Positions 43,810 to 62,248 of a stretch of DNA of 64,000 bases are shown here, piece by piece. Under the pieces are notes generated by a model. The model saw only the letters and a program-made list of their open reading frames with translations, was not told the origin of the DNA and made no database searches. This stretch comes from Afifella aestuarii (lineage in GTDB: Bacteria; Pseudomonadota; Alphaproteobacteria; Rhizobiales; Afifellaceae), in NCBI RefSeq assembly GCF_004023665.1, contig NZ_SAUF01000002.1, positions 434,001 through 498,000 on the forward strand, in the 5' to 3' direction. Numbering within the stretch: position 1 is the stretch's first letter; each line of letters begins with the position of its first letter. Made by a program: the position numbers and the translations under genes.

Positions 43810-44121
43810 GACGCACCGCGCCTGTGTGCACGCGCCCTTCCAGGTCGCGCGGAGGCCGCGCCTGGCGCATCTTACGATCGATGTCGTGAGAGAGAAAACT
43901 GGTACGAACGGGTGGATTCGAACCACCGACCTTCGGAGCCACAATCCGACGGAATGACAACATATTTTGCAGCTACCTTGTGCTAAATGCCTGAAATACC
44001 ATATTCATGATAGCGGCTTAGCGGAATCGATAAAATCAGAACGAAACAAGAATTGTGCCCCATAAGGCTCCGTCAACTTTTTTGAGGTTGGTAGGAATAT
44101 GGTAGGGTTTTTGGAGGTGGC
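43810..44121. other. Junction spacer between benE and integrase
   Basis: This 312-base gap holds the tRNA-His remnant. Base composition shifts to AT-rich at about 43950-44100, right of the remnant, which fits the edge of acquired DNA. No gene is seen here. Confidence 0.6.
43900..43949 (-). other. 3' remnant of tRNA-His (attachment site)
   Basis: On the minus strand this is the 3' part of a tRNA: a 5-base anticodon stem TCGGA/TCCGA around loop TTGTGGC (anticodon GTG, His), variable AGGTC, T-arm GGTGG-TTCGAAT-CCACC, then CGTTCGT, A, CCA. The D-arm and 5' acceptor strand are missing; sequence just beyond the anticodon stem is unrelated. A at the discriminator position instead of C fits the alphaproteobacterial tRNA-His type. 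A 3' tRNA piece next to an integrase gene is the usual sign of a recombined att site. Confidence 0.85.
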
Positions 44122-45714: not shown

Positions 45715-45922
45715 GTGAAGTTGGCGCGCGTTCTGGGGCGGAGCTCTGCCGGAGAACTTCCGCGGCAAGTGAGTTCCCGGGTGTGTGGCGCGATGTCACC
45801 AGCGCATTCGCGCTTTGCGCTATGACTTCGTGTCGACAATCTTGGTTGCGGCGGTCATTCTCTCCGGATTGGTGTGCTTCATGAAGGCGTCGTAAGGGAC
45901 ATTTTTGCTCGAATCTGGAAAA
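45715..45922. other. Spacer with a possible gene-end remnant
   Basis: No complete gene. On the minus strand an open frame ends in a TAG at 45820-45822 and reads YDAFMKHTNPERMTAATKIV before it, which looks like the C-terminus of a real protein that has no start; upstream it runs into the CRISPR leader. Family not recognised. Confidence 0.35.
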
Positions 45923-46080
45923 TCGCCCTTGGAAAACTTGAAAACATTTGATCTTGCTTGATAAATAGCCGGAAAAGGAGATGAGAGGCGGGCGCGATAT
46001 TTGCGAATCGAGGTCGAAAAGGTTCGCCCTTGGAAAACCGGTCAAAAATGCAAGTGGTTGTAGATGTTTGCAGAGAGTGA
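45923..46080 (+). promoter_or_regulatory. CRISPR leader 1
   Basis: AT-rich leader directly before the first repeat. It carries TCGCCCTTGGAAAA at 45923 and again at 46024, 158 and 57 bases before the repeat. The second copy continues CCGGTCAAAAATGCAAGTGG, shared with leaders 2 and 3. It should contain the array promoter and the site for spacer insertion. Confidence 0.8.
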
Positions 46081-46180
46081 GTGGCAGCCACTTGTCCGCA
46101 TGGACGCGGATTGAGACAAAGCGACGACCGCCGAGGCGGAATTCGTAGTGCGTGGCAGCCACTTGTCCGCATGGACGCGG
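46081..46180 (+). CRISPR. CRISPR array 1 (one spacer)
   Basis: One full 37-base repeat (46081-46117; begins GTGGCAGCCACTTG, ends GCGGATTGAGAC), a 34-base spacer (46118-46151), and a shortened terminal repeat (46152-46180) that lacks the last 8 bases. The repeat folds as TCCGC-ATGGAC-GCGGA, and ATTGAGAC would be the 5' handle of crRNAs, so transcription is to the right. Confidence 0.9.
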
Positions 46181-48503: not shown

Positions 48504-50311
48504 GTGCCGGATACTACAAATCGGATCTGCGTATCCGCCTGGAAAGCCCGTTTCTGTCCGCCGGATTGGAAGCGAAGGCCTTTGGGGTCGATGCGGCGCA
48601 GCTTCGTGACCGAAGCGGCTATCCGGTCCTGCCCGCGGGCCTGTTGCGCGGCGTGTTGCGCCATGCGCTGGAAGACCTGCTAGCGCGCAACATAGATGTG
48701 AAAGATGTCCTCGATCTCTTCGGCAGAGAGCTCCCGCACAAGGAGCCGGAGGATGATAAGCGTAATGAGGGCGTAGAAGAGAAAGAGCGTCCCGGTCGCA
48801 TCCGCATCAGCGACGCCCGCGCATGCCAGCCGTCCTCTGGCAAAGAGAGGGCGACACGGATCGCCATTGAGCCAGAGACGGGGGCGGTCAAGGAGGGCGC
48901 GCTTTTGGTCGTCGAGCTCTCCTATCCGGTGGGGAAGGAGGTCGATTTCAAGGCCGAAGTGCGGTTTCCTGCTGCCAGTCAGGCAGAGGCAAAACAGATT
49001 GCGGTTACCCTCGACAAGGCGCTGAAGCAGGTCGTGGCCGTCGGAGCTTACAAGACCGTCGGATTCGGGCGGGTCGTCGAATGCGCGGTTCTGGCCCCCC
49101 AGCAAGAGAAGCCATTTGCGGCAAAGCCGGAGCCGAAGAAAGGCTCCTCGTTTGTCTATTCATTCCAGCTCGATGGGCCGTTGCTGGTCGACACCCATTA
49201 CGCGGAGCAGAACGTTCTGCAAAGCTCAACCCGGATCTCCGGTGCTGTTTTGAAGGGTGCCTTGGCCCGGCGGCTTGCCGATAGTGGGGCGGCGAACGAA
49301 GAGGGCTTCGTCACCGGGCTGCTCGGAGAAGCGCTGAAGAAAACGATCATCTCGTTTGCGGATGTTTTTCAAGGCGCTTTGCCTCTGTCGATCGTTCAGC
49401 GTTACCTCGACAAGGATACAGCCGTTCCCGACGATGCAACGGGTTATATTGCCGACGATCTTTGGAAGGCCTCAAGCGGCAAAGCCGCAGCGTTCCGGAG
49501 CGATTGGAAGGACGAGGACTGGAAAAAAGGGGCCGCTCCAAGCGAAGCCGATCCTCTATCGGAGCTGGAGACGCGCACGCGCCTCAGTATCGAGCCGACG
49601 ACCGGCGCTGCCAAGCCGAGCGCGTTGTTCTCGCACCAGTTCTTGCGGACACCCCTTAAGGGCGAGGCGGCGCCCATCTGGAAAGCGCTGATAAAATGGC
49701 CGGAGCCGGGAGAGCCGCCGGACGAATTCTACAAGCTTCTCGGACATCTGAAAGCTGGGCTCTGGTCGATCGGGCGCCTGAAGGCAGGGACATGCTGTGA
49801 GCGGCTAGAGCTGGAGGAAGGAGTGCCACAGGCGGCCAACCAAGCGGAATTGACCGGGAAGATCGCTCTGATCCTGACAACGCCACATCTGATGGTGCGT
49901 GTCGGCGCTTTGGACGACGAAGAGACCTTCGGCGCTGCGATCGATGACTATTTCAAGACGGCAAGCGATGGTGCCTGGCAGATTGCCCGCGGAGCGGATG
50001 GCGAGCGGCAGCTCTTTGCTCAACAGGAATTGCGCGGGGACTTGCAGGCTGCGCGCTTTAGGCCTTTCGGGCGCGATCGGCTTGAACCTTTCGTGCTGAT
50101 GAAGGCTGGCTCGGTCTTCGTTCTTGAGCCAGTGCAGGCGAACGCCGCCGACATGCTTTCCGAATGGGAACGTTACGGCCTGCCGGATCCGCAATGGGAA
50201 GGCGTGCGACTTGAGGCGGCGACCTGTCCCTTCTTGAGGGGCAACGGTTACGGCGCGATCCGTATCGGCGCGCCGGGCACGCTGGTAGGGGCAGAGGAGG
50301 TCGCGCGGTGA
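48500..50311 (+). CDS. RAMP-family CRISPR protein, tandem Cas7-like domains
   Basis: A 603-residue backbone subunit. Two RAMP units are seen. The first (about 1-195) has SPFLSAGLEAKAFGVDA, VLPAGLLRGVLRHALEDLL and the glycine loop GAYKTVGFGRVV. The second (about 215-430) has LDGPLLVDTHYAEQNVL, RISGAVLKGALARRL and LSIEPTTGAAKPSALFSHQF. A further 170 residues at the end may be a third small domain. It would bind crRNA and perhaps cut target RNA every six bases, as Cas7 proteins do; which Asp is catalytic is not certain. ATGA overlap with cas10; next gene starts with GTG 50308. Confidence 0.75.
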   Translation: MSAGYYKSDLRIRLESPFLSAGLEAKAFGVDAAQLRDRSGYPVLPAGLLRGVLRHALEDLLARNIDVKDVLDLFGRELPHKEPEDDKRNEGVEEKERPGRIRISDARACQPSSGKERATRIAIEPETGAVKEGALLVVELSYPVGKEVDFKAEVRFPAASQAEAKQIAVTLDKALKQVVAVGAYKTVGFGRVVECAVLAPQQEKPFAAKPEPKKGSSFVYSFQLDGPLLVDTHYAEQNVLQSSTRISGAVLKGALARRLADSGAANEEGFVTGLLGEALKKTIISFADVFQGALPLSIVQRYLDKDTAVPDDATGYIADDLWKASSGKAAAFRSDWKDEDWKKGAAPSEADPLSELETRTRLSIEPTTGAAKPSALFSHQFLRTPLKGEAAPIWKALIKWPEPGEPPDEFYKLLGHLKAGLWSIGRLKAGTCCERLELEEGVPQAANQAELTGKIALILTTPHLMVRVGALDDEETFGAAIDDYFKTASDGAWQIARGADGERQLFAQQELRGDLQAARFRPFGRDRLEPFVLMKAGSVFVLEPVQANAADMLSEWERYGLPDPQWEGVRLEAATCPFLRGNGYGAIRIGAPGTLVGAEEVAR

Positions 50312-51687
50312 TCGGGGCCTGGACTGAAATCGAGGTTATCGCCGTGGCGGCGACTCCACTTATGATCGGCAGCGGCGACCACAAGAATATTCGGCGGCAC
50401 GACGGCAAGGATTTGCAGGAGGTGGAGCTTGCGCTTGTCGCCGTCGATGAAGATGGAAAGCCCGTCATCCCGGGCTCCACCCTGAAAGGCGCGCTCAGGG
50501 CACTGGCCGTGGCCGGGGGCTGTCCGGGCACGGAGGCTCTATTCGGGCCGGAGCGTATCGATGACCCTAAGAAGGCGAAGAGCGGGCGACTGATTTGCTG
50601 GACCGGGCGCTTCGAGGCTGCGCCCGACATGGGTGACTCCTCGATAAGGGAGAAAAACATTCCCGGCCACGGTACCGCCGCTGCCGCGAAAGGGCTGTTC
50701 GTCGACGCGCGCACGGCTATAGACCCAGCCTCCGGTGTGGCCTGGCAGGGGCGGCTGTTTCACGTCCAGGCCGTGGCGAAGGGCACGACCTTCCGGCTGC
50801 GCTTCGGGCTTCAGACCGCAGATAAGGCCGCTATTGGCCTCATGCAGAGCGTGCTTGCCCAGATGGCTCGCGACGGGCTCGTCTTGGGCAAGGGGCGGGG
50901 CGTGGGGCAGGGCAGTCTTAAGCTTTGCCTTGATGAGCTAAAGGTCGTGCGTCACGACGTGGATGTCTCCGGGGCCCCGGCAGAAGACTGCATCACTGAC
51001 GAATGGCGCGAGGCCATCGACGCAGTTGAGCACCCAGAGGGGGGTGGGCTCACAAAGCTCCTACTAACCTGCAAGGAAGCATTCATCAGCAACGATAACG
51101 CTGGCGTGGACTACGACAAGGACGGCTCGCCCAAGCTCGTCTATTTGCGCGAGCCTGGAACGGATAAACCGCGCTTGACGGGCGCCAGCCTGCGGGGGGC
51201 CTTGCGTGCCCGCGCCGTCTGGCTGGAACGCCTGAGAGACCCGGATCATCGCGATAACCGGGATTTGATACTCGACAAGACGATCCCCGCTTCCGATGCG
51301 GATCTGACGCGGCCGCGGGCGCGATGCAAGACCGTCGGAGAGCTGTCGTCGACCGAGCTCCTCTTCGGCATCAATGGTTGGCGCGGTCGCTTGCGTATTG
51401 TCTCTGTTCAGTGCGGAGAGCCTAAGGGAAGCGTCGTCATACGTTCCGTGCGGCTTGATCGTTTCTCCGGTGGGCCGATGCATGGGGCGCTGTTCTCCAT
51501 CGAGGCGGCGCGTGCGCCAGACTTCGAAGCTTGGCTGGCCCTCGATCCCGTCGGCCCTCTTGGCGCCTCTGAGCAGGATACAGTGCGCGGCGATCTGTTG
51601 AGGCGCCTCATCGAGGATCTGAAGAGGAACGGCCTGCGGCTGGGACATGGCACGAACAAAGGCTATGGGTGGTTCGATGTCGTTTAA
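50308..51687 (+). CDS. RAMP-family CRISPR protein, two Cas7-like domains
   Basis: A 459-residue double RAMP. First unit: TPLMIGSGDHKNIRRHDG, VIPGSTLKGALRALA and the glycine loop GKGRGVGQGSLKL (to about residue 210). Second unit: KLLLTCKEAFISNDNAG, RLTGASLRGALRARAVWLE, and final loop LRLGHGTNKGYGWFDVV. This matches the Cas7-2x type of fused backbone subunit known from type III-D variants. Starts at GTG 50308 in the overlap with the gene before and overlaps the next by 11 bases. Confidence 0.78.
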   Translation: MIGAWTEIEVIAVAATPLMIGSGDHKNIRRHDGKDLQEVELALVAVDEDGKPVIPGSTLKGALRALAVAGGCPGTEALFGPERIDDPKKAKSGRLICWTGRFEAAPDMGDSSIREKNIPGHGTAAAAKGLFVDARTAIDPASGVAWQGRLFHVQAVAKGTTFRLRFGLQTADKAAIGLMQSVLAQMARDGLVLGKGRGVGQGSLKLCLDELKVVRHDVDVSGAPAEDCITDEWREAIDAVEHPEGGGLTKLLLTCKEAFISNDNAGVDYDKDGSPKLVYLREPGTDKPRLTGASLRGALRARAVWLERLRDPDHRDNRDLILDKTIPASDADLTRPRARCKTVGELSSTELLFGINGWRGRLRIVSVQCGEPKGSVVIRSVRLDRFSGGPMHGALFSIEAARAPDFEAWLALDPVGPLGASEQDTVRGDLLRRLIEDLKRNGLRLGHGTNKGYGWFDVV

Positions 51688-53959
51688 AGAAAAGTCACCC
51701 GAAGAAAAATTGAAGCTGGCGGGGTTCCCTGTTGATAGGCGTCATCTCGATTTCTTGAGGAGTGCCATATTTCAAATTGAATGGAGAGGAGAAGAGTACT
51801 CTCTAGAAAGTGTAAGAAGTAAAATATTGCAGTCGATCCATAATGAGCCTGTTGTCAATGAGGCCCTAGAAAAAGCTAAGAGCGAAGTGCGAAAAACCGA
51901 AAGTGGCTCGATAAAAAATAAGAGGCTTTCGGAAACAATTGAGGAGAAGTTGGATACGAAAATATGGTCGTCGGCTGAACTTGGGCCTCTCCTGAACGCT
52001 CCATATCGCTTCGCTGTACTGAATGAAAGCGTTGTCGCCGCTCAGTCCCAACCCGATCTTGATCGGCCCCTGCCGGGTGGGCTGTGCGCCACACTTAAGG
52101 TCAGTTGGCGGATCGAAACGCCGCTACTCGTTGGGGCGGGTGACAGCAATGATGTTCCCTTCGCCCTTGGCGGGCCTAAAGACTGGGTCATTCCTGGCGC
52201 TACGTTACGTGGCGTGGTGCGGGCAGCCCTTGAGGCGGTGGCCCATGCGAGGCTGGTTCAGACCAATCGGCGCTATCGGTTCGCACTGCGCGATTTCGAG
52301 CATCCGAGATACAAGCGCTTCATCAAGGAAGGGGGCGTCGGTGACGGCGCCCTGAAGGCTGGCTGGCTGACCAAGGAGTGTGACAAATACAAAATCAGGC
52401 CCTGTAAAACCTGGGGGCGCATCCCAATTGATTTGTTGAAGGCACGCATTCGTCCAGAAGAGCAAAAAAAAAGCATATCGTGGGCCAAATTTGACAGAAC
52501 CAGGAAGTATACGGCTTCGAGTCCGGACTTGAAGCTAGTTTTTGAGCCCCATTGGAAGGACCGTAAACTTGCCTTCAAAACCCCGCGGGCCTTCCGTTCG
52601 GAGCGGGACCGGCATCAGCAGGAGGTTTTCCGACCTTTGCCAATCGGGGAATCTGGAACTCAAGGCTTTTACGTCTTCTCCGGTGCGGCAACCGATCCGC
52701 AAAAGAAGCAATATGAGTACGTCTTCTTCGACGATCCCGAGGCAAAGTCGGTCGCATTGACGGAGAGGTCATGGCTCAACTTCCTCGTCACGAACACGAA
52801 ACAGGGCAACCGCGATCGCGAGCCGGATGGCGCCTGGAAGGAATTCGGCGGGGACGTCGTCGAGGGGCAGCGCATCCCGATCTTCTTCTATGGTGACCTC
52901 AACGAGCAGAACGAAGAGTTTTGTTTCGGGCTCACGCGGCTCTTTCGTATGCCGCATGCGCATGCGGTCGGCGATCTCGTTCCGAAACCGCATGAGCTAA
53001 GGCTCGATGACAGGGGCCGGTTGGAGCCGGACCTCGTCGAGGCCCTCTTCGGATATGTCTTCGAGACGGAGGACTTTCCGCAACCACGGCCGGACGAGGC
53101 GGTGGCGCATAAGGGGCGGATCGCCTTCGGTTTCGCGCGGCCGGTCAACAGAAAGGCGTTCGAACTCTGGCCGGGGGACAAGAAAGACCCGCTAGAGACG
53201 ATCCAGGGTGCGCCGAAGCCGAGCTTTGCGCCCTTCTATCTGGTCGGGCCGGAAAAGGACTGGTCTGCGGATAACGCTCAGCTTGCCGGGCGCAAGCGTT
53301 ATGTGCCTAGGGAGGCTGAAGACTCAGGCCTTATGGTCGAGAGGCTGATGGAGCATCGGATGGATGACGCAAGGGCAGGTGGGGCCATCTCGAAGAAAAC
53401 CATCAGCAAACTGCGCTTCCTGCGTCCGATCTCTGCAGATGCAACCTTCTCAGGCGAAATTCGCCTTCATAACGTGAGCGAGGCGGAACTCGGCGCCATC
53501 CTTTGGGTGCTAACTTTTGGTGGCGGCGGAGCGAACCGCTATCGCCATATGCTGGGGCGCGGCAAGCCATTCGGTGCCGGGCGGGCGGCGGTTGCAGGCA
53601 TCGAGGGTTCCATTCGCCGCAATGCCGATCCGGAGAAGCCGGAGAAGATTACCTGGAAAATCGGCGACGGCGCAGGCGAGTTGGGGCCTTTCCTGGAGAA
53701 GTTCGAGGCGCAGATGGACTCTGCGCTTGGTAGACCTGGGGCTTGGCGCGCTTCAGGACCCGTTCGGTCTTTTCTAGCCTGTTCCCTGCCGCAGGATTGG
53801 CGTCTACCCGAGTTTGATTATCTTAACTTTGCCAGAGACCCGAAAGTTGGCGAGAAAAATAATGGTTGGCGCTTCAAGAAGCTGCGTGATCATACGGGGC
53901 TGGGAGCGCAAGGGGCTCCGGACCGGCTTTTGAAGGCGCCGCCAGACAAGGACGTGTAA
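51677..53959 (+). CDS. Large RAMP protein (TIGR03986-like)
   Basis: A 760-residue CRISPR protein. Residues 1-115 are helical, charged and coded by distinctly AT-rich DNA, and might act as the Cas11-like small subunit that is otherwise missing. The RAMP body follows: ETPLLVGAGDSNDVPFALGG, VIPGATLRGVVRAALEAV near 185, large inserts, and LHNVSEAELGAILWVLTFGG with GGANRYRHMLGRGKPFGAGR near 620. Length and pattern resemble the TIGR03986 family of CRISPR RAMPs. Start 51677 is inferred from the gene overlap; ATG 51647 is possible. Last gene of the effector operon. Confidence 0.75.
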   Translation: MSFKEKSPEEKLKLAGFPVDRRHLDFLRSAIFQIEWRGEEYSLESVRSKILQSIHNEPVVNEALEKAKSEVRKTESGSIKNKRLSETIEEKLDTKIWSSAELGPLLNAPYRFAVLNESVVAAQSQPDLDRPLPGGLCATLKVSWRIETPLLVGAGDSNDVPFALGGPKDWVIPGATLRGVVRAALEAVAHARLVQTNRRYRFALRDFEHPRYKRFIKEGGVGDGALKAGWLTKECDKYKIRPCKTWGRIPIDLLKARIRPEEQKKSISWAKFDRTRKYTASSPDLKLVFEPHWKDRKLAFKTPRAFRSERDRHQQEVFRPLPIGESGTQGFYVFSGAATDPQKKQYEYVFFDDPEAKSVALTERSWLNFLVTNTKQGNRDREPDGAWKEFGGDVVEGQRIPIFFYGDLNEQNEEFCFGLTRLFRMPHAHAVGDLVPKPHELRLDDRGRLEPDLVEALFGYVFETEDFPQPRPDEAVAHKGRIAFGFARPVNRKAFELWPGDKKDPLETIQGAPKPSFAPFYLVGPEKDWSADNAQLAGRKRYVPREAEDSGLMVERLMEHRMDDARAGGAISKKTISKLRFLRPISADATFSGEIRLHNVSEAELGAILWVLTFGGGGANRYRHMLGRGKPFGAGRAAVAGIEGSIRRNADPEKPEKITWKIGDGAGELGPFLEKFEAQMDSALGRPGAWRASGPVRSFLACSLPQDWRLPEFDYLNFARDPKVGEKNNGWRFKKLRDHTGLGAQGAPDRLLKAPPDKDV

Positions 53960-54009: not shown

Positions 54010-54834
54010 TTAACGTCGCCCAGGTGCGGCAATCTCCGCGCGGTATTCCGGCTCTTGTTTCAGAACCGCAAGAGCGGCTTCTGCGTCTGGAGCGCCGCCG
54101 TCCCGGCGCATGCCCCAGAAACCCTGCTCCGGAAGGTCACCGCCGCGCCAGCCGCCAGGGAAGGCCGCATCGAGCGCGGCGATGGAGGCGCCGCGTCCGA
54201 AAAAGGAAAGCTCCTCCGGCCCTTCGATCAGAAGATCACGCGTTGGGTCGCCTCTTTCCAGCTCCCTAAGTCGGAGCGGATCTGTAATCGCGGCTGTGCG
54301 ATCGTGCGGGCTCCGTACGATGAGGAGCCGACCGTCTAAGGCCTCTTCCGCAGCCGCAAGGGCGGCGATGCCTGCTTGCTCTTCCTCCGCGGTGATGCCT
54401 TGGGCAGCGCGATCGTCGCGCCGGATCTTGTCCATCTCCTCGGGGCTAGCCCCAAGCTCCGCCATGGCGCGCAGATGCCCGCAATCGTTGGCGGCGATGA
54501 GCGCAAAACGACGTGTCCATCGTTCCTTCGGCAAGTCGAGAAGCTGGAAAACCTGTTCCAGCGCGCTTGGCCGTCCCGCCGTCTCGCCATGGTGATCGAC
54601 GACGATCGCGCCAGATATCTCATCGTCGATCTCAAGCTCGACAAGAACGGGGCGCTTGCCCGCCTTCAGGACAGTGTCGATGTCGCTGGCGTAATCGGAC
54701 GCGCGCGCGCCCCAGAAGAGGCCTCTGTCGACGATCGCGTCTGCGCCCAGCGTCTCTTCGACGAGGTGCCGGATCGCCAGCATTTCGAGGTCTCTGCCAC
54801 CCAGGAAGAAGACGAGATCTGATGTCTGGCTCAT
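54010..54834 (-). CDS. DHH-type phosphoesterase-like protein (CRISPR-linked)
   Basis: A 274-residue protein, antisense to the effector operon and convergent with it. It holds GAIVVDHHGETAG with D80-H81-H82, the signature of DHH phosphoesterases; upstream VLVELEIDDE may be motif II, and RFALIAANDCGH a further metal ligand region. The C-terminus GGWRGGDLPEQGFWG takes the place of the DHHA1 Gly-rich motif. DHH proteins of the NrN type degrade SAM-AMP in CorA-associated type III systems; here that role is inferred from the neighbouring CorA. The classic DxD of motif I is not obvious. Start 54834 is the Met best matching a fold start; the longer frame lacks support. Confidence 0.65.
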   Translation of the reverse strand: MSQTSDLVFFLGGRDLEMLAIRHLVEETLGADAIVDRGLFWGARASDYASDIDTVLKAGKRPVLVELEIDDEISGAIVVDHHGETAGRPSALEQVFQLLDLPKERWTRRFALIAANDCGHLRAMAELGASPEEMDKIRRDDRAAQGITAEEEQAGIAALAAAEEALDGRLLIVRSPHDRTAAITDPLRLRELERGDPTRDLLIEGPEELSFFGRGASIAALDAAFPGGWRGGDLPEQGFWGMRRDGGAPDAEAALAVLKQEPEYRAEIAAPGRR

Positions 54835-54972
54835 GAACGATCGTCTGCTGTGTGTTGAAGGCGAGAGAGGGGCCGAGGAAAGCGTTTTGGCCAAGCGGCT
54901 GCATATCCGCGGGCAGAACGTTTCACAAGGCGTGAGGCACCTTGGCATGTTGCGTATGCGGTAAGATCATGC

Positions 54973-54991: not shown

Positions 54992-55023
54992 GAAACGCCT
55001 TTTTCTTGAGAATATTTCCGCCG

Positions 55024-56757
55024 ATGTCTATTTGGAAACCTCAGCCCGCCGAGAGTATCAAGGTCAAGCAATTCCGGCAGATCTTCTTCTGGCCGCTGAC
55101 GCTTGCCGATCCTCCGGTTAAACGGGTGGGCGAGGACGTCGCAAAAGTCCGGGCCTCGCTTAAGGACACCGCCTGGAAACCAGCTGATCCGTGGACGGTG
55201 CAGCCGGACAACAACTTTGGCGGCCCTTACGAGGAGTTCGTCTACTTTCACGACTTCGTCCAGCGCTTTCTTTACGATCGTCGTGAAGACGGGCCGATTT
55301 CACTTTTTCATCGGACCGATATTCGTACGCTTAAAGCGACAATCAACGGGGAAATTTACAGCTTCAACGTCGAACTGTTGACACTCCATCTCTTCGAGAC
55401 GGGTACGGCGGTTCTGACGCTGGAGCTGGTGCACGAGCAGGAAGGGGACGAAAAAATCTCATTGGCGCAGGCGCAGACGACCGCCGATCAATTGCGGCGT
55501 GCGTTTCCTGGCTTCTGGCAAGACGGCGCGGCAGGGTTCTGCCCCTCTGACGTGACGCTGTGCACCCCCTGTGGGCGGGCGGTGACGCTGCCTGATGCGT
55601 CTCGGGGCCGCCTGCACGCGACCGACTGGGCTCACAAGAACAGCACCGCCCGCGTGTTTCCCTGGTGGCGGGCGCTCGTGGCGCCCCTGCAGCTCGATGG
55701 CGAGATCAAGGTCGGCCCTCGCTGGCGGCACGTGCTCGACGAGCGGTTGCCGACCATGACTTATATCTCTCTGAGTGAGGCGTGTAGCTCTCTGAGTGGT
55801 GCGTCGGGCGGCTCCGCCGCCGATGATTTTGCCCTCGTCAGCCCTGGCGACTGGATGCGCCTTGCGCAGGCTGATGGAGCCGGTTCCGATCTGGCACCCG
55901 CCAATATGGCGTTTCTCGAAGAGGCGGTTGGCCGGGAAGCTTTTTACGATCGCTTCTTTCCGGGCGAAGGCATGCATCCCGACACGGCCACACGTTTCGC
56001 CTTTCTCGGCTACCATTTCCTCGCCGTCGGCGCAGGATGGTTCTTCGACAACATCCTGCGAGAGCATTTCCGCCGCCATTACCGCCAGATGGCCTTCGTC
56101 GCCCATCTGGAGTTTGCATCTCTCCTTGCTCTCTCCAGCCGTGTCACCAAGCTGGTCGACGAAACCTCCAAGCATAAGGACAAGGAGCCCGATCGCTTCC
56201 GCAATGGTCTCTTGGCGATCGAGGAGGATTTTCTCGATTTCACCCATCGCTATCGCTTCACCAACGTCTCCAATCATGTTCAGGCCCGCGAGATGTTCGA
56301 GCGCATGCGAAAGACCTTGGGCCTTGCTGAGCTCTACGACGATGTGAAGGAAGAGATTAAGACGGCGGCCGAGCTTGCGGTCGCTCTCGATCAGTGTGAG
56401 AGCGCCCGGGCCGCCACGCGCCTGACGCGTTTGGCGACGCTGGGCCTTCCCGCGGGCCTGGCCGTCGGGGCGGGCGGAATGAACCTTCTCGTCGGATCGG
56501 AGGCGCCAAACGTCGCGTGGATTCCAGACGATGGCGCGGCCGGTCTATGGCGGGCCCAGGTTCTGCAATTCGCTCTTCTGCTTTCCGTCTTCTACGGGCT
56601 TGGCTGGGCGGCGCTCAGCCTGATCGTGCATGACGAGGGCAAGGAGGCGGCGCGTCTGCGCGGCGTCACGCTGGGTCTTGCCGTCGCCGCCGCGATCGCT
56701 GCCCTGGCGCTGGTCGCGTCCTTCCTGGCCGGGAGTCCCACGGCCGGTGGTGGCTAG
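55024..56757 (+). CDS. CorA-like membrane protein, CRISPR ancillary effector
   Basis: A 577-residue protein. A long soluble domain (1-460; PYEEFVYFHDFVQRFLYD, HLEFASLLALSSRVTKLVDE and a long helix FTHRYRFTNVSNHVQAREMF) precedes three C-terminal hydrophobic segments (about 466-492, 510-536, 546-571). The first ends with G485-M486-N487, the GMN selectivity motif of CorA channels, and VSNHVQA with the helix before it is the CorA stalk type. In type III CRISPR systems such proteins are membrane effectors opened or activated by a Cas10-made nucleotide. Here it is next to the cas operon and divergent from the DHH gene. The third membrane segment is unusual. Confidence 0.75.
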   Translation: MSIWKPQPAESIKVKQFRQIFFWPLTLADPPVKRVGEDVAKVRASLKDTAWKPADPWTVQPDNNFGGPYEEFVYFHDFVQRFLYDRREDGPISLFHRTDIRTLKATINGEIYSFNVELLTLHLFETGTAVLTLELVHEQEGDEKISLAQAQTTADQLRRAFPGFWQDGAAGFCPSDVTLCTPCGRAVTLPDASRGRLHATDWAHKNSTARVFPWWRALVAPLQLDGEIKVGPRWRHVLDERLPTMTYISLSEACSSLSGASGGSAADDFALVSPGDWMRLAQADGAGSDLAPANMAFLEEAVGREAFYDRFFPGEGMHPDTATRFAFLGYHFLAVGAGWFFDNILREHFRRHYRQMAFVAHLEFASLLALSSRVTKLVDETSKHKDKEPDRFRNGLLAIEEDFLDFTHRYRFTNVSNHVQAREMFERMRKTLGLAELYDDVKEEIKTAAELAVALDQCESARAATRLTRLATLGLPAGLAVGAGGMNLLVGSEAPNVAWIPDDGAAGLWRAQVLQFALLLSVFYGLGWAALSLIVHDEGKEAARLRGVTLGLAVAAAIAALALVASFLAGSPTAGGG

Positions 56758-56790
56758 CGACCTACGGTGACTGCGCTCAAAGAGATGAAA

Positions 56791-56948
56791 TCGCCCTTGG
56801 AAAATGGACAAGTCACTGAGTTAATTTGAGAAAAAGGAAGAAAAGGAGGCAAAAAGGACGTTTGAGACATGCGCAGGAGACGCAAAATGGCTCGCCCTTG
56901 GAAAACCGGTCAAAAATGCAAATGGCTGCGGATGCTTACAGAGAGTGA
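56791..56948 (+). promoter_or_regulatory. CRISPR leader 2
   Basis: Leader of array 2, with the motif TCGCCCTTGGAAAA at 56791 and 56892 (158 and 57 bases before the repeat). It is almost the same as leader 3 over the whole length, including GACAAGTCACTGAGTTAATT after the first motif, so the two are recent copies. Confidence 0.85.
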
Positions 56949-57189
56949 GTGGCAGCCACTTGTCCGCATGGACGCGGATTGAGACCTGTCCGGCCTCAGC
57001 CGGGCCCGGAGCTACCAGTGGCAGCCACTTGTCCGCATGGACGCGGATTGAGACTTGGTGACCACCAGTACGTCGTAGAAACCTCCGTGGCAGCCACTTG
57101 TCCGCACGGACGCGGATTGAGACCCGCAAGATGAGAGGCTGGATAAACACCGACAGTCGGTGGCAGCCACTTGTCCGCATGGACGCGGA
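56949..57189 (+). CRISPR. CRISPR array 2 (three spacers)
   Basis: Repeats at 56949-56985, 57018-57054, 57087-57123 and a shortened one at 57160-57189; spacers of 32, 32 and 36 bases between them. The third repeat has C for T in the hairpin loop (CACGG). The terminal repeat keeps the hairpin but loses the ATTGAGAC handle. Transcription to the right, convergent with cas2. Confidence 0.95.
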
Positions 57190-57292
57190 GGTGCGGCGCG
57201 GTGGCGGGCGTTTGCTCGTCGCGGCTGCCGTCGACCGTGTCCTCGCGCGGTCCGTGCTGTTGCGCGGCGCGTCCCGGGCGTCCCCGTCTTGA

Positions 57293-57583
57293 TCAGATGA
57301 TCCAGTAGCCCTCTTCGCTCTCGAAGGGGGCGCCGTCGCCATAGACGCGGCTGCGTTCAAAACCGTCTGCGCCGATGACATAGACGCGCAGGCTGTCGCC
57401 GGGGCCCAGCAGGGCGGCGAGCCTCTGGCCGAGGGCTGCGGCCTTGGCGCGGCTCATGCGCACCTCGAAGACGGAATATTGCACGCGCGTCGCGGCGTTC
57501 TCCAGAAGTCGGGCGATACGCCTCCTGCGCCGGTCTTCGGAAACGTCATAGGAGAACACCGTCAGCATCTCACCGCGCGCCAT
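57293..57583 (-). CDS. cas2: CRISPR-associated protein Cas2
   Basis: A 96-residue adaptation protein that bridges Cas1 dimers during spacer insertion. The ferredoxin-like start LTVFSYDVSEDRRRRRIARLL holds the conserved Asp, followed by RVQYSVFEVRMS. AAAGGAG lies 5 bases upstream of ATG 57583. It stands alone between arrays 2 and 3, not in one unit with cas1, which is unusual. Confidence 0.93.
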   Translation of the reverse strand: MARGEMLTVFSYDVSEDRRRRRIARLLENAATRVQYSVFEVRMSRAKAAALGQRLAALLGPGDSLRVYVIGADGFERSRVYGDGAPFESEEGYWII

Positions 57584-57692
57584 CGCCGCTCTCCTTTCGC
57601 CTCGACAACCCCTGTTTGAGGCGGCATTCTCGCCCGGTCGGCGCCATCCGGAAAGGCGCCGCGGCGGTCGCAGGGGGCCAGAAAGCCTGAAA

Positions 57693-57850
57693 TCGCCCTT
57701 GGAAAATGGACAAGTCACTGAGTTAATTTGAGAAAAAGGCAGAAAAGGAGGCAAAAAGGACGTTTGAGAGGTGCGTAGGAGACGCAAAATGGCTCGCCCT
57801 TGGAAAACCGGTCAAAAATGCAAGTGGTTGCAGCTGCTTACAGAGAGTGA
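57693..57850 (+). promoter_or_regulatory. CRISPR leader 3
   Basis: Leader of array 3. TCGCCCTTGGAAAA at 57693 and 57794, the same spacing to the repeat (158 and 57) as in leader 2, which it matches closely throughout. It starts about 110 bases upstream of the divergent cas2 start, so the gap carries both promoters. Confidence 0.85.
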
Positions 57851-58241
57851 GGGGCAGCCACTTGTCCGCACGGACGCGGATTGAGACCGACTTCGTCGTC
57901 GCTCTCCATGGCGCCGCCATGGGGCAGCCACTTGTCCGCACGGACGCGGATTGAGACTCAGCAGCTTTTGGCTGCCGTGGCTGCGCCTGCCGCCCAGGGG
58001 CAGCCACTTGTCCGCACGGACGCGGATTGAGACGGAGGGTGAGGAACAGGCCAATCTCCCGTACCTCGGGGCAGCCACTTGTCCGCACGGACGCGGATTG
58101 AGACGCGGCCTAAGCCGCGGTTGCAAACTTCACGCCGCGGGGCAGCCACTTGTCCGCATGGACGCGGATTGAGACGCAAGCTTGGCGCGCGAAATCCGCT
58201 TTTCGTTGCGTGGCAGCCACTTGTCCGCATGGGCGCAGATC
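57851..58241 (+). CRISPR. CRISPR array 3 (five spacers)
   Basis: Repeats at 57851, 57921, 57997, 58068 and 58139 (37 bases each) and a decayed terminal copy from 58210. Spacers are 33, 39, 34, 34 and 34 bases. The first four repeats begin GGGG and have CACGG in the loop; the last intact one (58139) has the CATGG of array 2. The terminal copy has changes in the stem (GGGCGCAGAT). It is the largest array of the window and is convergent with cas1. Confidence 0.95.
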
Positions 58242-58330
58242 GGGGTTTGCTGGGGATCTGAAGCCCGGCGGCGTGCCCATTCCGGCGAGCGACCGGCAGG
58301 GGGCTGAGGGCCGGCCCGCTCGCGGCTCTG

Positions 58331-59632
58331 CTAATGGTCGATCACTTGGGGCTGGAAGGGCTGGCTCTTCGGGGCACGGCAATGTGCGCCATAGGCACCT
58401 GCCTCTTCCTCCATGAGGACGCGCCAGCTACGCTTGCGCCCCGAATGGGGGCTTTTCAGCCGCCGCGCCGCGGCCGTCTCGTAGCCCTCGATGATCGCGC
58501 GCCGCGCCTCTGGCCCGATCCACATCGTGCCGTCCTCCCGACCCGAAAACATGTCGGCATCGAGCCGCCCCTGGTTGAAGAGCGAGACGGCGAGCCCTTC
58601 CGTCAGGGGCGCGCGGAAACCTTCCATCAGATCCCAGACGCAGGCCTCGCCCCGATCGGAGGCCGCATGCAGCGCGCCGATGCCCGGATGCAGGCCGCGG
58701 CTCAGAAGGGCGGCGCGGATATCGCGTGCCAAAAGCGCCGTCAGATAATTGATCGTGGCGTTGAGCGGATCGCCCGCCGGACGCAGGCGGCGAAAGGGTT
58801 GCGGCGCCACCGCGGCAAGGCGGCCGAGCGCCGGCCAATAGATCGCGCCCGCCGCGCCCTCGGCGCCGCGCAAGGCGTCCACGTCGCGCGCTTCCGGCAG
58901 CTTGCGGATCATCCGGCCGAGCGTCTTCGTGGCGACGATCACTTCCGGATCGCTGACACGGCGGTTCAAGCGGTGCAGCTGGGCGCGCTCGTTGCGCAGC
59001 CGTCCTTCCACGATGCGTCTCGCAAGATCGGCGGCAAGTGCCGAGTCGAGCGCCACTTTCGCTTGCGCCAGATGCAGGCCTGCACGTCTGAAAGAGGGCG
59101 GCGATAGCCAGCCGAGGGTCTCGCCCTCGCCATTGACGAAGGCGAAGTCGGTATCGCTCGCCAGGGCATGGCGGATCGCTTCCGTCTCGACCTCGGCGCC
59201 CGGACCGAGCTCGATGCGGTCGACCCGGGTGTGGGCGATGGCAAGAAGCTCGCGGCTGTCTTCGCCCGTGACGGTGAAGCTGAGGTTGCGCAAGGCGAGG
59301 CGGCGCCCGGCACCGACCACATGCAAAATGCGCTGGCCGCGGTCATAGCCGCGCGCGAGCTCGTCCTCCTCAAGGACTTCGGCGGCGCGGACCTCTTCCG
59401 CCTTGGCCGCGTCGCGCGCCGCGAGGCCGCGCATCGCTTCCAGCGCCTCTTCCTCCGGGTCGGCGACGCGCTTCAGCGTCATGGAGCGGACGAACAGATG
59501 GCCGAGGAACTCAAAGCCCCGATCGAAATCGACGACGCGGCTGCCTTCGCCATGCATTTCCAGGCCGTGGCGATCGAGCACCTCCTGCGCGCGCCCCAAT
59601 GCGCGCCGAGCCGCGGCGGCGGCACAGGATGA
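58331..59632 (-). CDS. cas1: Cas1, C-terminal part of a reverse transcriptase-Cas1 fusion
   Basis: Integrase of CRISPR adaptation. From 59779 the frame is open, but similarity begins near 59620 with the end of the RT domain (RRALGRAQEVLDRHGLEMHG, GFEFLGHLFV). The Cas1 domain follows with the expected residues: Glu in RGAEGAAGAIYWPAL, His in GLHPGIGALHAAS and Asp/Glu in VWDLMEGFRAPLTEG, and DPLNATINYLTALLARD. It is in a different frame from the RT half by one base. No good independent start is evident, so it likely needs the upstream half or a frameshift to be made. Confidence 0.88.
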   Translation of the reverse strand, partial: SSCAAAAARRALGRAQEVLDRHGLEMHGEGSRVVDFDRGFEFLGHLFVRSMTLKRVADPEEEALEAMRGLAARDAAKAEEVRAAEVLEEDELARGYDRGQRILHVVGAGRRLALRNLSFTVTGEDSRELLAIAHTRVDRIELGPGAEVETEAIRHALASDTDFAFVNGEGETLGWLSPPSFRRAGLHLAQAKVALDSALAADLARRIVEGRLRNERAQLHRLNRRVSDPEVIVATKTLGRMIRKLPEARDVDALRGAEGAAGAIYWPALGRLAAVAPQPFRRLRPAGDPLNATINYLTALLARDIRAALLSRGLHPGIGALHAASDRGEACVWDLMEGFRAPLTEGLAVSLFNQGRLDADMFSGREDGTMWIGPEARRAIIEGYETAAARRLKSPHSGRKRSWRVLMEEEAGAYGAHCRAPKSQPFQPQVIDH

Positions 59633-60341
59633 CGAAATCATCGGCAAAGCGGATGAGCCGCGCTCCGCCCGTCGCCAGCTCCTCGTCGACGGAATCGAGA
59701 TAGAGATTGGCGAGAAGCGGCGACAGTGGCGAACCCTGCGGCAACCCTGTGCCGGGCGTCGAGAGGGACGCGCCCGCATGTTCGAGCCAATGGGCGACGA
59801 GATCGCTCACGCGCTCCGCACCGCTGCGTCCGGCGAGAGCCTCTTCGAGCCTCTGGAGCAGCGGCGCTTGCGGGATCCGCTCAAAACAGCGCACGATGTC
59901 GGCTTCGACGACATGCACGAAGCCCTTCCGGCGCAACGAGCCGATGCGACGGACGGCCATGGCGACGGAACGCCCCGGACGATAGGCGAAGCTGTCGTCC
60001 TCGAACATCGGATCGAGCAGGGGCGTGAGCTCCTGTGCGCAGGCCGTCTGCGCGACGCGGTCGACGATGGAGGGGATGGCGAGGGGCCGGGTGCCGCCGC
60101 GCTTCTTCGCAATTTCCACGATGCGCAGGGCGCGCGGGCGATAGCTGCCCTCGCGCAGCTGTTTCGACAGGGAGAGGATGCGCCTTGCGGCCGCGCGCGA
60201 AAAGGCGGCAAGCGTCTCGCCGTCGCCCCCGGCGCAGCCGCCATTGGCGCGCACCCGCGCCCAGGCCTGATCGAGCGTGGCGGGTTCGGTGACCCGCAAG
60301 AAGAGATCTTCAGGCCGCATCGGCCCGTCCCGTAGCGCCAT
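59511..60341 (-). CDS. Reverse transcriptase, N-terminal part of the RT-Cas1 fusion
   Basis: Group II intron-like reverse transcriptase domain. Conserved blocks are in order: GCAGGDGETLAAF, REGSYRPRALRIVEIAKKRGG, the first catalytic Asp in EADIVRCFERI, GTGLPQGSPLSPLLANLYL, and RFADDFVILC with D234-D235 intact. After Cys 240 the frame turns to unrelated Arg-rich sequence and stops at 59511, whereas the expected continuation is found in the +1 frame. In known RT-Cas1 systems the RT lets spacers be taken from RNA. Start 60341 is the first in-frame ATG, about 135 bases from leader 4. Confidence 0.88.
   Translation of the reverse strand: MALRDGPMRPEDLFLRVTEPATLDQAWARVRANGGCAGGDGETLAAFSRAAARRILSLSKQLREGSYRPRALRIVEIAKKRGGTRPLAIPSIVDRVAQTACAQELTPLLDPMFEDDSFAYRPGRSVAMAVRRIGSLRRKGFVHVVEADIVRCFERIPQAPLLQRLEEALAGRSGAERVSDLVAHWLEHAGASLSTPGTGLPQGSPLSPLLANLYLDSVDEELATGGARLIRFADDFVILCRRRGSARIGARAGGARSPRPGNAWRRQPRRRFRSGL
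59605..59622 (-). other. Probable +1 frameshift point in RT-Cas1
   Basis: Reading after TGC (59624-59622) must skip one base to keep the RT domain going into Cas1. The stretch is a CCG repeat (CGCCGCCGCGG), a site prone to slippage or to base-call error. Together the two halves would code for about 670 residues, the normal size for an RT-Cas1 fusion without Cas6. Confidence 0.7.
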
Positions 60342-60477
60342 CGGCGTATTCTCTCCCCCAAGGTCGGCAGCATGCGGGGTCTTGCCTCTGCCTGGCGCTG
60401 GAAACGCATGGCCCTAAGCTTTGCGGAGACAGCTTTCGCGCTCACGAAAGCTAGCCGAAACGCGCAAAAACCGGAAA

Positions 60478-60634
60478 TCGCCCTTGGAAAAGTGATAAAT
60501 ATCTGTTCGAAAAAGAAAAATTTTCCTGTTAGGAGGATTTCGGGAGGGTTGTGCCGCAGGATTCGTGCAAAAAATGCTCGCCCTTGGAAACTGGGCTTTT
60601 TTGTTGTTTGACGTCAAAGAGTTCTGGCGGGTAA
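60478..60634 (+). promoter_or_regulatory. CRISPR leader 4
   Basis: Leader of array 4. TCGCCCTTGGAAAA at 60478 and TCGCCCTTGGAAA at 60578, 157 and 57 bases before the repeat. Sequence between and after the motifs is unlike leaders 1-3, yet the distances are kept. Confidence 0.8.
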
Positions 60635-60881
60635 GCTGCAGCGTGATGTCCGCATGGACGCGGATTGAGACGAGAAGCTCGAAAAGGGGCGCGGTGGTGG
60701 CCGTGATCGGCTGCAGCGTGATGTCCGCATGGACGCGGATTGAGACCAAGCGTTCAGCCTCGCGCGCGTTTTTTCCGCTCTGCTGCAGCGTGATGTCCGC
60801 ATGGACGCGGATTGAGACCCCGTCGAACTCTCCGGCGATATTTTGCCCCATGCTGCAGCTTGATGTCCGCATGGACGCGGA
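60635..60881 (+). CRISPR. CRISPR array 4 (three spacers, variant repeat)
   Basis: Repeats at 60635-60671, 60710-60746, 60782-60818 and a shortened one at 60852-60881; spacers of 38, 35 and 33 bases. The repeat begins GCTGCAGCGTGATG in place of GTGGCAGCCACTTG, but the remaining 23 bases with the hairpin and ATTGAGAC handle equal the other arrays. The terminal copy again stops right after GCGGA. Convergent with cas6. Confidence 0.93.
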
Positions 60882-60894
60882 CGAGCGGGGCGCC

Positions 60895-61833
60895 TTAGCT
60901 TGCCAGGGTGAGGAGGTCGTAGCGGCCCATGCCGAGTGCGGCGTGGGAGCCGACATGGGTTTCCGCGCCGATGCGCAGGAGCGCTGCGAGATCGGGCGTG
61001 GGCTGCGGCAGCATCAGCGTGCCGAGGACGCCGCCCATCGCTCTTTCACGCCTTTGGGCCTTTGACCCATTCCGCCAGCCGGGCGCGGTCTCCACCTGCC
61101 ATTCGGCCCGGCGTCCGAGCGCGTCCGCTTCCGCCTTCAACGCCGCCGGGTCGATGGCAAGCGCATGCCCCTGCCAAAGCGCAAGCCCGCCGACGCGATT
61201 GGCGACGCCGGTCAAGAGGCTTTCCGGGCGCACATGCATCTGCGCGCCGGAGCGCAGCGCCACCGGCGTCACGAAGGAGAGGAGAAGGCCCGCGCCCGCC
61301 TCGGCGGCGGGCAGGCCGCTTGCGAGGCCGACCCGGCGATCTGTCACTTTCAGCGGGCGGCGTCTGTCGTGGGTGTCGAGGCCGTTTCGCAGAGCCCGGA
61401 CCATGGCGTCGGCCGCTTCGCCCGCCCAATCGACCGCAATGCCGAAGAGCGTCAGCGAGACGATGAGGTCGTTTCCGTCCGTATCGAGCGCGATGGCGAA
61501 AGGCTTTGGGATCTCGAGCCGCGCCGTCATCCTGCCCTGGACGTTGAAGAAGAGATCGTAGGCGCAAGGGGCGGGCCAGGGGCAGGGGCCGCCCGCAAGC
61601 GCCTCCGCGGAGGCACCCTCGGCCAGAGCGCGGCCCCAGGCGCCGCGCATTCTCGCCGGTGCATTCGGATTTTTCGCAAGCGCCGCAGCCCCAGGACAGA
61701 AGAGCTCGATGCGCGCCATGCGCCATGTCGCGAGGAGATCGACGGGCACGAGCGGCCGCTGCCGCGCCGCCTCAAGATAGGCGCGAAGGGAAGTGAGGGG
61801 CGTGTCGGCGGGGCGCTCTTGCATGACCTGCAC
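60895..61833 (-). CDS. cas6: Cas6-like crRNA-processing endoribonuclease
   Basis: A 312-residue protein expected to cut the precursor transcript at the repeat hairpin. It shows the PF10040-type C-terminal domain, with TPVALRSGAQMHVRPESLL, VTDRRVGLASG and the Gly-rich end THVGSHAALGMGRYDLL. The N-terminal half (MARIELFCPGAAALAKNPNA) is the first ferredoxin-like fold. The start is GTG 61833 or ATG 61824. It lies alone between arrays 4 and 5. Confidence 0.82.
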   Translation of the reverse strand: MQVMQERPADTPLTSLRAYLEAARQRPLVPVDLLATWRMARIELFCPGAAALAKNPNAPARMRGAWGRALAEGASAEALAGGPCPWPAPCAYDLFFNVQGRMTARLEIPKPFAIALDTDGNDLIVSLTLFGIAVDWAGEAADAMVRALRNGLDTHDRRRPLKVTDRRVGLASGLPAAEAGAGLLLSFVTPVALRSGAQMHVRPESLLTGVANRVGGLALWQGHALAIDPAALKAEADALGRRAEWQVETAPGWRNGSKAQRRERAMGGVLGTLMLPQPTPDLAALLRIGAETHVGSHAALGMGRYDLLTLAS

Positions 61834-62053
61834 AACCTTGTCGGGATTTTCGTGCCGCGCAACTGCGCCCTATGGCGCAACCCGGCGGCATGATTGTTCG
61901 TGGGGATGCGAGCGCGCGCGCCCGCCCCGGGCAGAAGGCGGCGATCTGTCTCCGACTTCCCGCTCGACAAGGCCCATTGAGGCCTGCATTCTCGCCACCC
62001 GGGCGGTCTTTCGGGTGCATATCTTCTGGTTGAGATCGTTCGAAGGGCTGAAT

Positions 62054-62211
62054 TCGCCCTTGGAAAATGTATAATATGCTGATTTTAAAGGAGAATAAGG
62101 CGGAGGTGGCGGGTAAAAGCCGACGATGGCGGCGGCCGGAAAGGGAAAATGATTTCGCCCTTGAAAAACCGGGCTAAAATGCGAGTGGCTGCAAGGATTT
62201 GCAGAGGGTGA
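62054..62211 (+). promoter_or_regulatory. CRISPR leader 5
   Basis: Leader in front of a single repeat. TCGCCCTTGGAAAA at 62054 and a one-base variant (TCGCCCTTGAAAAA) at 62155, 158 and 57 bases before the repeat. The end, from CCGGGCTAAAATGCGAGTGGCTGCA on in two short blocks, resembles leaders 1-3. Begins about 220 bases upstream of the divergent cas6 start. Confidence 0.8.
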
Positions 62212-62248
62212 GTGGCAGCCACTTGTCCGCATGGACGCGGATTGAGGC
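62212..62248 (+). CRISPR. Solitary CRISPR repeat (array 5, no spacer)
   Basis: One 37-base repeat of the main type, with its handle changed to ATTGAGGC. No second repeat follows. With its complete leader it is either an array that lost its spacers or an unused insertion site. Confidence 0.85.

What the first reader, a model, noticed from the sequence alone, without database searches (positions are those of the whole stretch)
56791..62248. Leader-array units interleaved one by one with cas2, RT-cas1 and cas6
Order on the map: array 2, cas2, array 3, RT-cas1, array 4, cas6, solitary repeat 5. All arrays read right and all three genes read left, so each gene is flanked by a divergent leader and a convergent array end. 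This is unlike the usual single array beside a cas operon and suggests repeated copying of a leader-repeat unit into gene gaps.
Basis: seen in the sequence. Interest (0 to 1): 0.75.

Follow-up and report, generated by a model that had tools for sequence, protein, structure and literature searches.

The report
CRISPR arrays interleaved with cas genes
A bacterium's CRISPR immune locus carries five units of control region plus memory array, three of them set one by one in front of the spacer-capture and RNA-processing genes; this is the extreme of a layout seen in several relatives and suggests that the place where immune memories are written has been multiplied inside the locus.

Summary
The map is right. 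Five leader-array units, all on the + strand (17 repeats, 12 distinct spacers), lie in a type III CRISPR locus. Units 2-5 alternate with cas2, RT-cas1 and cas6, which read left; each gene start faces a leader, each gene end meets an array end. Misassembly is unlikely.

Leaders 1, 2, 3 and 5 are clearly copies (70-95% identical); leader 4 shares mainly its two boxes. There are no target-site duplications, copy ends differ, and unit 1 carries DNA matching the start of cas2: segmental duplication fits better than insertion of a discrete element. Of 16 relatives in the RT-Cas1 clade, 7 clearly have two or more units (3 more possibly) and 4 have one between adaptation or cas6 genes, so the layout is extreme, not unique.

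All five leaders keep two boxes 100-101 nt apart. Such pairs occur in other CRISPR leaders, with and without RT, and leader motifs aid spacer uptake in type I-D; so all five look like acquisition sites (inferred).

New variant of a known kind.

The parts
45795..45892 (.). stretch upstream of leader 1, homologous to 57561-57661 (cas2 start and its upstream region)
   Evidence: local alignment score 28, maximum 21 in 300 shuffles; 0 of 500 shuffles in a shorter window
45917..46082 (+). leader of unit 1 (boxes 45923-45936 and 46024-46037)
46083..46180 (+). array 1: 2 repeats, 1 spacer; last repeat ends at the presumed Cas6 site
46767..53959 (+). effector genes: Cas10-like 46767-48503, RAMP genes 48500-50311, 50308-51687, 51647-53959
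   Evidence: Cas10 by PADLOC E 1.7e-25, Pfam palm2 only E 0.0049, below its cut-off
54010..54948 (-). DHH-family ancillary gene
   Evidence: PADLOC E 9e-77 and 4e-37
55006..56757 (+). CorA-like ancillary gene
   Evidence: PADLOC E 2.6e-85
56786..56950 (+). leader of unit 2 (boxes 56791-56804 and 56892-56905), 95% identical to leader 3
56951..57190 (+). array 2: 4 repeats, 3 spacers
57293..57583 (-). cas2
   Evidence: PF09827 E 1.1e-17; start codon at 57583
57688..57852 (+). leader of unit 3 (boxes 57693-57706 and 57794-57807)
57853..58240 (+). array 3: 6 repeats, 5 spacers
58331..59779 (-). Cas1 part of RT-cas1 (own frame)
   Evidence: PF01867 E 5.6e-54; E, H, D, E columns invariant in alignment A2 (their catalytic role is recalled)
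59511..60341 (-). RT part of RT-cas1 (different frame from the Cas1 part)
   Evidence: PF00078 E 3.3e-26; FADD motif in the translation
60472..60636 (+). leader of unit 4 (boxes 60478-60491 and 60578-60591), the most diverged
60637..60883 (+). array 4: 4 repeats, 3 spacers; 5' part of the repeat differs from the other units
60895..61833 (-). cas6
   Evidence: PF10040 E 4.3e-8; PADLOC E 1.6e-27
62048..62213 (+). leader of unit 5 (boxes 62054-62067 and 62155-62168)
62214..62248 (+). solitary repeat 5, no spacer
43891..43951 (.). left attachment repeat, 61 nt identical to the tRNA-His end of the island at contig C2:512884-512944
44122..45714 (+). tyrosine recombinase of the island
   Evidence: PF00589 E 1.6e-7

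Best explanation
The locus is a type III CRISPR-Cas locus with an RT-cas1 adaptation gene, in which the leader-array unit (a site where new spacers are added and from which the array is transcribed) has been multiplied to five, mainly by segmental duplication and recombination within the locus. Units 3, 4 and 5 keep the geometry that is usual in the family: leader head to head with a cas gene start, array reading away from it. As units were added, the compact RT-cas1/cas2/cas6 block came apart into single genes, each facing its own leader. Shown here: homology of leaders 1, 2, 3 and 5, both leader boxes kept in all five, distinct spacers, copy ends that differ and in one case reach into cas2. 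Inferred: that unit 4 is an older copy, that the locus's own Cas1-Cas2 reads the boxes in all five leaders, that several leader ends are kept because each gives fresh, well expressed memory slots, and that the shared intergenic stretches also drive the divergent cas genes. As sequenced, RT-cas1 is frame-broken, so acquisition may be off now, or RT and Cas1 may be made apart, or the break may be a sequencing error.
For: Leaders 1, 2, 3, 5 are 70-95% identical. 17 of the 19 leaders compared in 8 multi-unit loci match best within their own locus, the 2 exceptions being Rhodovulum sp. PH10. Two boxes 100-101 nt apart in all five leaders (the second box of leader 5 has one change and missed the strict pattern). 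13 of 25 leaders of the family, four of the five in the window among them, have the strict pair; 0.16 expected from shuffles. The 5' flanks of the two boxes match within a leader more than between loci (14 loci, 0 of 10,000 permutations). Unit 1 upstream DNA matches the cas2 start region. No target-site duplications. RT-cas1, cas2 and cas6 in one block in 9 of 16 relatives; two-unit interleaved forms in Azospirillum lipoferum, Rhodovulum sp. PH10, Roseospirillum parvum and Tistrella mobilis. In type I-D, leader motifs are reported to enhance spacer uptake (review PMC10212523, passages read).
Against: Leader 4 is 37-42% identical to the others without gaps, so its copy status is not shown by overall likeness. 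No genome near enough (best RT 56%, best Cas1 49%) shows an intermediate, so the order of events is unknown. Within-locus likeness could come from gene conversion. The unit 3/unit 5 upstream match is significant only in a short window (0 of 500), not in a longer one (score 22, shuffle maximum 27). RT-cas1 is frame-broken, the arrays are short and unit 5 has no spacer, which also fits decay. No expression data; the promoter scan found no sigma-70-like site in 56700-62400.
Confidence: 0.65

Rival explanations
1. The multi-unit layout is old and was inherited; the leaders look alike because gene conversion, or joint selection by the same Cas1-Cas2, keeps them alike, not because of recent copying.
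For: Multi-unit loci are scattered over the RT-Cas1 clade; leaders match best within a locus in six other loci; leader boxes covary within a leader; leader 4 is as far from its neighbours as from other species.
Against: Leaders 2 and 3 are 95% identical outside the boxes too, with a sharp upstream edge; unit 1 shares cas2-side DNA with unit 3.
Confidence: 0.19
2. A discrete leader-repeat element moves and inserts into gene gaps, by a Cas1-type integration or by RT-made copies of an array transcript that ends at the Cas6 cut.
For: Unit 2 starts near the first box, and three of the four multi-repeat arrays end at the presumed Cas6 site.
Against: No target-site duplications; upstream DNA of unit 1 reaches into cas2; terminal repeats intact up to the Cas6 site and then lost occur in 9 of 22 arrays examined, 2 of 4 single-array relatives among them, so this mark is not special.
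Confidence: 0.06
3. A decaying locus: units are leftovers of recombination and none matters.
For: RT-cas1 frame break; short arrays and a solitary repeat; mobile island. A solitary repeat also stands in relative L114 where its near twin Tistrella has an array.
Against: Both boxes kept in all five leaders; repeats near identical within arrays, three terminal repeats kept up to the Cas6 site; effector, cas2 and cas6 frames are open.
Confidence: 0.18
4. Assembly artefact.
For: Repeats can confuse assemblers; the genome is in 8 contigs.
Against: Longest exact repeat under 55 nt; units differ by many bases; the contig is 1.22 Mb.
Confidence: 0.02

Closest known systems
RT-Cas1 type III loci of Alphaproteobacteria (probably clade 7 of PMC5541045; label by taxonomy only, not tested)
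   Same: RT-Cas1, Cas2 and Cas6 homologues; array in front of RT-cas1, with the leader towards the gene in most; leader box pair about 100 nt apart in many; closest RT 56% (Azospirillum lipoferum), closest Cas1 49% (Rhodovulum sp. PH10)
   Different: five units, where the relatives' stretches show one to three; cas2 set apart from RT-cas1 by a unit; RT-cas1 in two frames
Azospirillum lipoferum 4B plasmid AZO_p2 and Rhodovulum sp. PH10 loci
   Same: array, RT-cas1, cas2, array, cas6 with arrays antiparallel to the genes
   Different: two units; no array between RT-cas1 and cas2
Type I-D leader motifs I-III (Kieper et al. 2019, not held; seen only in passages of review PMC10212523)
   Same: long leader with conserved motifs reported to enhance spacer uptake
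   Different: other CRISPR type; experimental there, only comparative here; motif-to-box identity not tested
Arrays inside Cas loci ('overlap' class of PMC12814883; section 14 and passages read)
   Same: array lies within the cas gene block
   Different: that survey counts them as a small number of arrays; the parts read do not describe one-by-one alternation

Membership tests
Type III CRISPR-Cas locus | CRISPR arrays with leader | tested here: met
Type III CRISPR-Cas locus | Cas10 | tested here: inconclusive
   PADLOC Cas10 E 1.7e-25; Pfam palm2 E 0.0049, below cut-off; subtype not settled
Type III CRISPR-Cas locus | RAMP effector subunits | tested here: met
   PF03787 above cut-off in three genes; TIGR03986 E 4.7e-58, above its cut-off
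RT-Cas1 fusion protein | RT and Cas1 in one open reading frame | tested here: not met
   two frames in this sequence; one frame in 25 of 26 relatives tried. Split RT and Cas1 genes are also known (PMC5513706, section 6 read)
RT-Cas1 adaptation module (descent) | RT and Cas1 domains group with RT-Cas1 fusions | tested here: met
   Cas1 tree: 17-row alphaproteobacterial clade 100/100; the RT tree gives the same 17 rows only weakly, 89/89, drawn open inside
RT-Cas1 adaptation module (descent) | spacer uptake from RNA | not testable with these tools
   no acquisition data; phage searches with arrays 2 and 3 gave only a repeat-borne match, E 0.1-0.2
Mobile leader-repeat element | target-site duplication and fixed ends | tested here: not met

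The most novel reading that the evidence does not exclude
Each leader is a two-way control region: the locus's own Cas1-Cas2 (or a partner) binds two boxes set about ten helical turns apart, loops the leader to place new spacers, and at the same time governs the cas gene on the other side. Splitting the operon so that cas2, RT-cas1 and cas6 each face a leader would couple the supply of each protein to use of its own array, giving distributed memory with built-in feedback.
Probability: 0.15. Interest if true: 0.8.

Novelty: new variant of a known kind. Interest (0 to 1): 0.55.

Why it matters
CRISPR loci are usually drawn as one operon and one array. This family shows the acquisition platform itself multiplied and set in front of single cas genes, in several lineages, with leaders that mostly resemble their neighbours. 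It offers a natural set of five leaders for one integrase, with diverged and solitary forms, for asking how Cas1-Cas2 chooses its array and why cells keep several. The leader box pair gives concrete sites to mutate.

Tried and rejected
Target-site duplications: none. RT-made copying ending at the Cas6 site: the same ends occur in 9 of 22 arrays examined (for Tistrella and L023 the script set the repeat edge imprecisely), so the mark is not special.

Leader boxes as an RT-Cas1 speciality: not supported by the control. The pair (two 12-mers alike at 11 or more positions, nearer copy at -42 to -70, spacing 70-130) was found at 12 of 73 array sides in the first RT set (10 of 28 loci; 0.4 sides expected), 5 of 22 in a held-out RT set (4 of 7 loci; 0.12 expected), and 4 of 36 in loci without RT (3 of 14 loci with a testable array, 15 fetched; 0.4 expected; two at 100 and 101 nt). 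By loci, 14 of 35 against 3 of 14, Fisher p 0.32. One of the 12, L023, is an AT run and should be discounted. L136, L142 and L156 of the held-out set gave none. RT was confirmed by tblastn in all 7 held-out loci (weak in L136) and in none of the 15 controls. Clustering of spacings near 81, 91 and 101 nt suggests whole helical turns, weakly: 0 of 20,000 random sets for 10 related loci, 528 of 20,000 if only three classes count; the Roseospirillum pair at 98 and some held-out or control pairs (79, 95, 108) fit less well.

Isolated repeats: none outside arrays in 11 relatives, but L114, checked later, has one. Spacer origin: arrays 2 and 3 searched in phages, only a Gordonia phage match in the repeat; arrays 1 and 4 not searched. 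Viral contigs: no relative of the Cas1 part. Promoter scan: none. The exact paired leader pattern was found in the own genome only: 1 of 11 in the family, 1 of 385 in the class sample.

Literature: ten searches. In the listings and passages that I saw, nothing describes one-by-one interleaving or these boxes in RT-Cas1 loci. Read: PMC5513706 section 6 and passages; PMC5541045 first part of section 4 and passages; PMC12814883 section 14 and passages; passages only of PMC11014452, PMC9456107, PMC6360697, PMC12259127, PMC10212523. Figures of loci could not be seen; Buyukyoruk 2025, Santiago-Frangos 2021 and Kieper 2019 are not held, so novelty in print is uncertain.

Full report
What is there. 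The window holds a type III CRISPR-Cas locus at 45.8-62.25 kb. From left to right: leader-array unit 1 (45917-46180, +), a Cas10-like gene and three RAMP genes (46767-53959, +), a DHH-family gene (-), a CorA-like gene (+), unit 2 (56786-57190, +), cas2 (57293-57583, -), unit 3 (57688-58240, +), RT-cas1 (58331-60341, -), unit 4 (60472-60883, +), cas6 (60895-61833, -) and unit 5 (62048-62248, +), a leader with a single repeat. The arrays hold 2, 4, 6, 4 and 1 repeats and 12 different spacers of 32-39 nt. The repeat core gave 13 matches in the window against none in 100 shuffles and occurs only in this locus of the genome. The longest exact repeat across the locus is at least 50 and under 55 nt and the contig is 1.22 Mb, so the order is unlikely to be an assembly error.

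What the finding does not mention. The RT part and the Cas1 part of RT-cas1 lie in different frames that overlap near 59.5-59.8 kb. Of 26 relatives tried for the trees, 25 have both in one frame, a set chosen partly for that; L044 does not, and L051, L061 and L115 look split or partial. The FADD motif of the RT and the invariant E, H, D and E columns of Cas1 are intact (their catalytic role is recalled). Either this strain cannot make the fusion, or makes the parts separately (secondary splits are reported in PMC5513706, section 6), or the sequence has an error there. The locus lies on an integrative island: 61 nt at 43891-43951 are repeated exactly at a tRNA-His gene 35 kb away (C2:512884-512944), and a tyrosine recombinase gene stands next to the left copy. 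Two genus mates (G001, G002) have the same left flank and tRNA-His gene with other content between, and none of the four genus mates has a match to the Cas1 part at E 1e-30.

Are the units copies? For units 1, 2, 3 and 5, yes: gapped identity of the 165-nt leaders is 95% between units 2 and 3 and 70-75% for the other pairs among these four (61-69% without gaps). Leader 4 is 59-64% identical to the others with gaps and 37-42% without; leaders of different species often reach 55-63% by the gapped measure, so overall likeness does not show that unit 4 is a copy. It does have the same box sequence twice at the same places and the same repeat stem-loop and 3' handle, with a different 5' part of the repeat. 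The same Cas6 could thus process all five; that is inference.

How were they copied? The best direct repeat across each unit is 5 nt, no better than chance. The copied stretches have no fixed ends: the homology of units 2 and 3 stops at the leader edge, while unit 1 shares a further ~100 nt with unit 3 (45795-45892 and 57561-57661), which on the unit 3 side runs through the cas2 start codon at 57581-57583 (score 28, maximum 21 in 300 shuffles). Units 3 and 5 share part of the same stretch, significant in a short window only (0 of 500; not above shuffles). A unit 2/unit 4 upstream match (2 of 500) is weak, since ten pairs were tested. No cas gene start faces unit 1 today, so its upstream DNA is best read as copied together with cas2-side DNA. 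Segmental duplication by recombination fits; a discrete mobile leader-repeat element does not.

Is it unusual? In the Cas1 tree the window falls in a 17-row alphaproteobacterial clade (support 100/100). All 16 relatives in it have an array just upstream of RT-cas1. It reads away from the gene in most; L045 is an exception judged by its leader boxes, and L025 and L040 are unsure. Nine of 16 have RT-cas1, cas2 and cas6 together (L021, L022, L023, L024, L025, L026, L035, L037, L041). Seven clearly have two or more units (L024, L026, L027, L028, L034, L037, L038). Three more may: L045 has a second two-repeat array, the longer stretch L039 of the Oryzibacter locus L025 has a second array with a related repeat, and L114 has a solitary repeat after cas6, where its near twin Tistrella (L028) has an array. 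Four have a unit between RT-cas1, cas2 or cas6 (L027, L034, L038, L028), five with L114. Stretches differ in length, so these are lower bounds; duplicates L036 (of L022), L039 (of L025) and L029/L030 (of L028/L114) were dropped before counting. So the window's five-unit, one-by-one alternation is the extreme of a recurrent tendency. Of 19 leaders compared in 8 multi-unit loci, 17 match best within their own locus, some by small margins; the two of Rhodovulum sp. PH10 do not. Either duplication was repeated in each lineage or leaders are kept alike within a locus.

What the leaders do. Every window leader has TCGCCCTTGGAAAA or a near copy twice, 100 or 101 nt apart, the nearer TGGAAA core about 52 nt before the first repeat. 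Many clade leaders share the layout with other sequences: 13 of 25 leaders, four of the five in the window among them, have a strict pair 92-108 nt apart where shuffles give 0.16; the leaders within a locus are not independent. The bases before the core match between the two boxes of one leader better than between loci (mean 3.4 against 1.7 of 6; 0 of 10,000 permutations over 14 loci). Cautions: the automatic choice took a decoy for box 1 of unit 1, and the second boxes of L024 are weak. The covariation suggests recognition by something specific to each locus, its Cas1-Cas2 being the first candidate (inference). A scan without motif knowledge found such pairs, most often at spacings near 81, 91 and 101, in RT loci of several phyla and in a held-out RT set, but also in loci without RT (14 of 35 RT loci against 3 of 14, p 0.32). 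The pair is therefore not shown to be special to RT-Cas1. In type I-D, leader motifs are reported to enhance spacer uptake (review PMC10212523, passages read). By that likeness, all five window leaders, including the one with a lone repeat, look like working or recently working acquisition sites.

Terminal repeats. In units 1, 2 and 4 the last repeat is intact up to the presumed Cas6 site and then lost. The same holds for 9 of 22 arrays examined in the family, among them L035 and L023 of the 4 single-array relatives looked at, but not L021 or L022. I read this as loss of a part that no spacer needs, not as a sign of copying from RNA.

Verdict. The most likely account is segmental multiplication of acquisition platforms, most keeping their leader head to head with a cas gene. 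The functional gain (more fresh memory slots, separate control of each gene) is inference. In the listings and passages of ten literature searches I saw no description of one-by-one interleaving; figures could not be viewed and key leader surveys are not held, so novelty in print is not certain. I file it as a new variant of a known kind.

Noticed in passing
window 59511-59779: RT-cas1 is in two frames (RT ORF and Cas1 ORF overlap); 25 of 26 relatives tried have one frame. Sequencing error, split gene or loss of the fusion.
   Followed up: partly
window 43891-43951 to contig C2:512944 (L126): 35-kb integrative island at tRNA-His with a tyrosine recombinase at one end; the far half carries a DNA methylase and a ResIII-type gene, probably a restriction system, plus AAA and GIY-YIG-like genes. 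The same tRNA-His site holds other content in genus mates G001 and G002.
   Followed up: partly
leaders of L021, L035, L045, L046, L048, L043, L061, L041, L094, L137, L138, L140, L155, L150, L151: Paired 12-nt leader boxes at spacings near 81, 91 or 101 nt, the nearer box 55-65 nt from the array, in RT-linked and some other CRISPR types; the spacings differ by about one helical turn.
   Followed up: partly
window 54010-56757: DHH-family gene and CorA-like gene next to the effector operon, both also seen in L024, L026, L034, L048 and L053; from general knowledge this pair points to the SAM-AMP signalling kind of type III system (recalled, not tested).
   Followed up: no
window 60637-60883: Unit 4 repeats have a different 5' part (CTGCAGCGTGA for GTGGCAGCCACT) but the same stem-loop and handle as the other units.
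   Followed up: partly
L045:9432-9934: Rhodobacteraceae locus whose leader boxes lie on the far side of the array from RT-cas1, the reverse of its relatives.
   Followed up: no
L114:5216: Solitary repeat after cas6, where the near twin Tistrella locus (L028) has an array: a parallel to unit 5 of the window.
   Followed up: no
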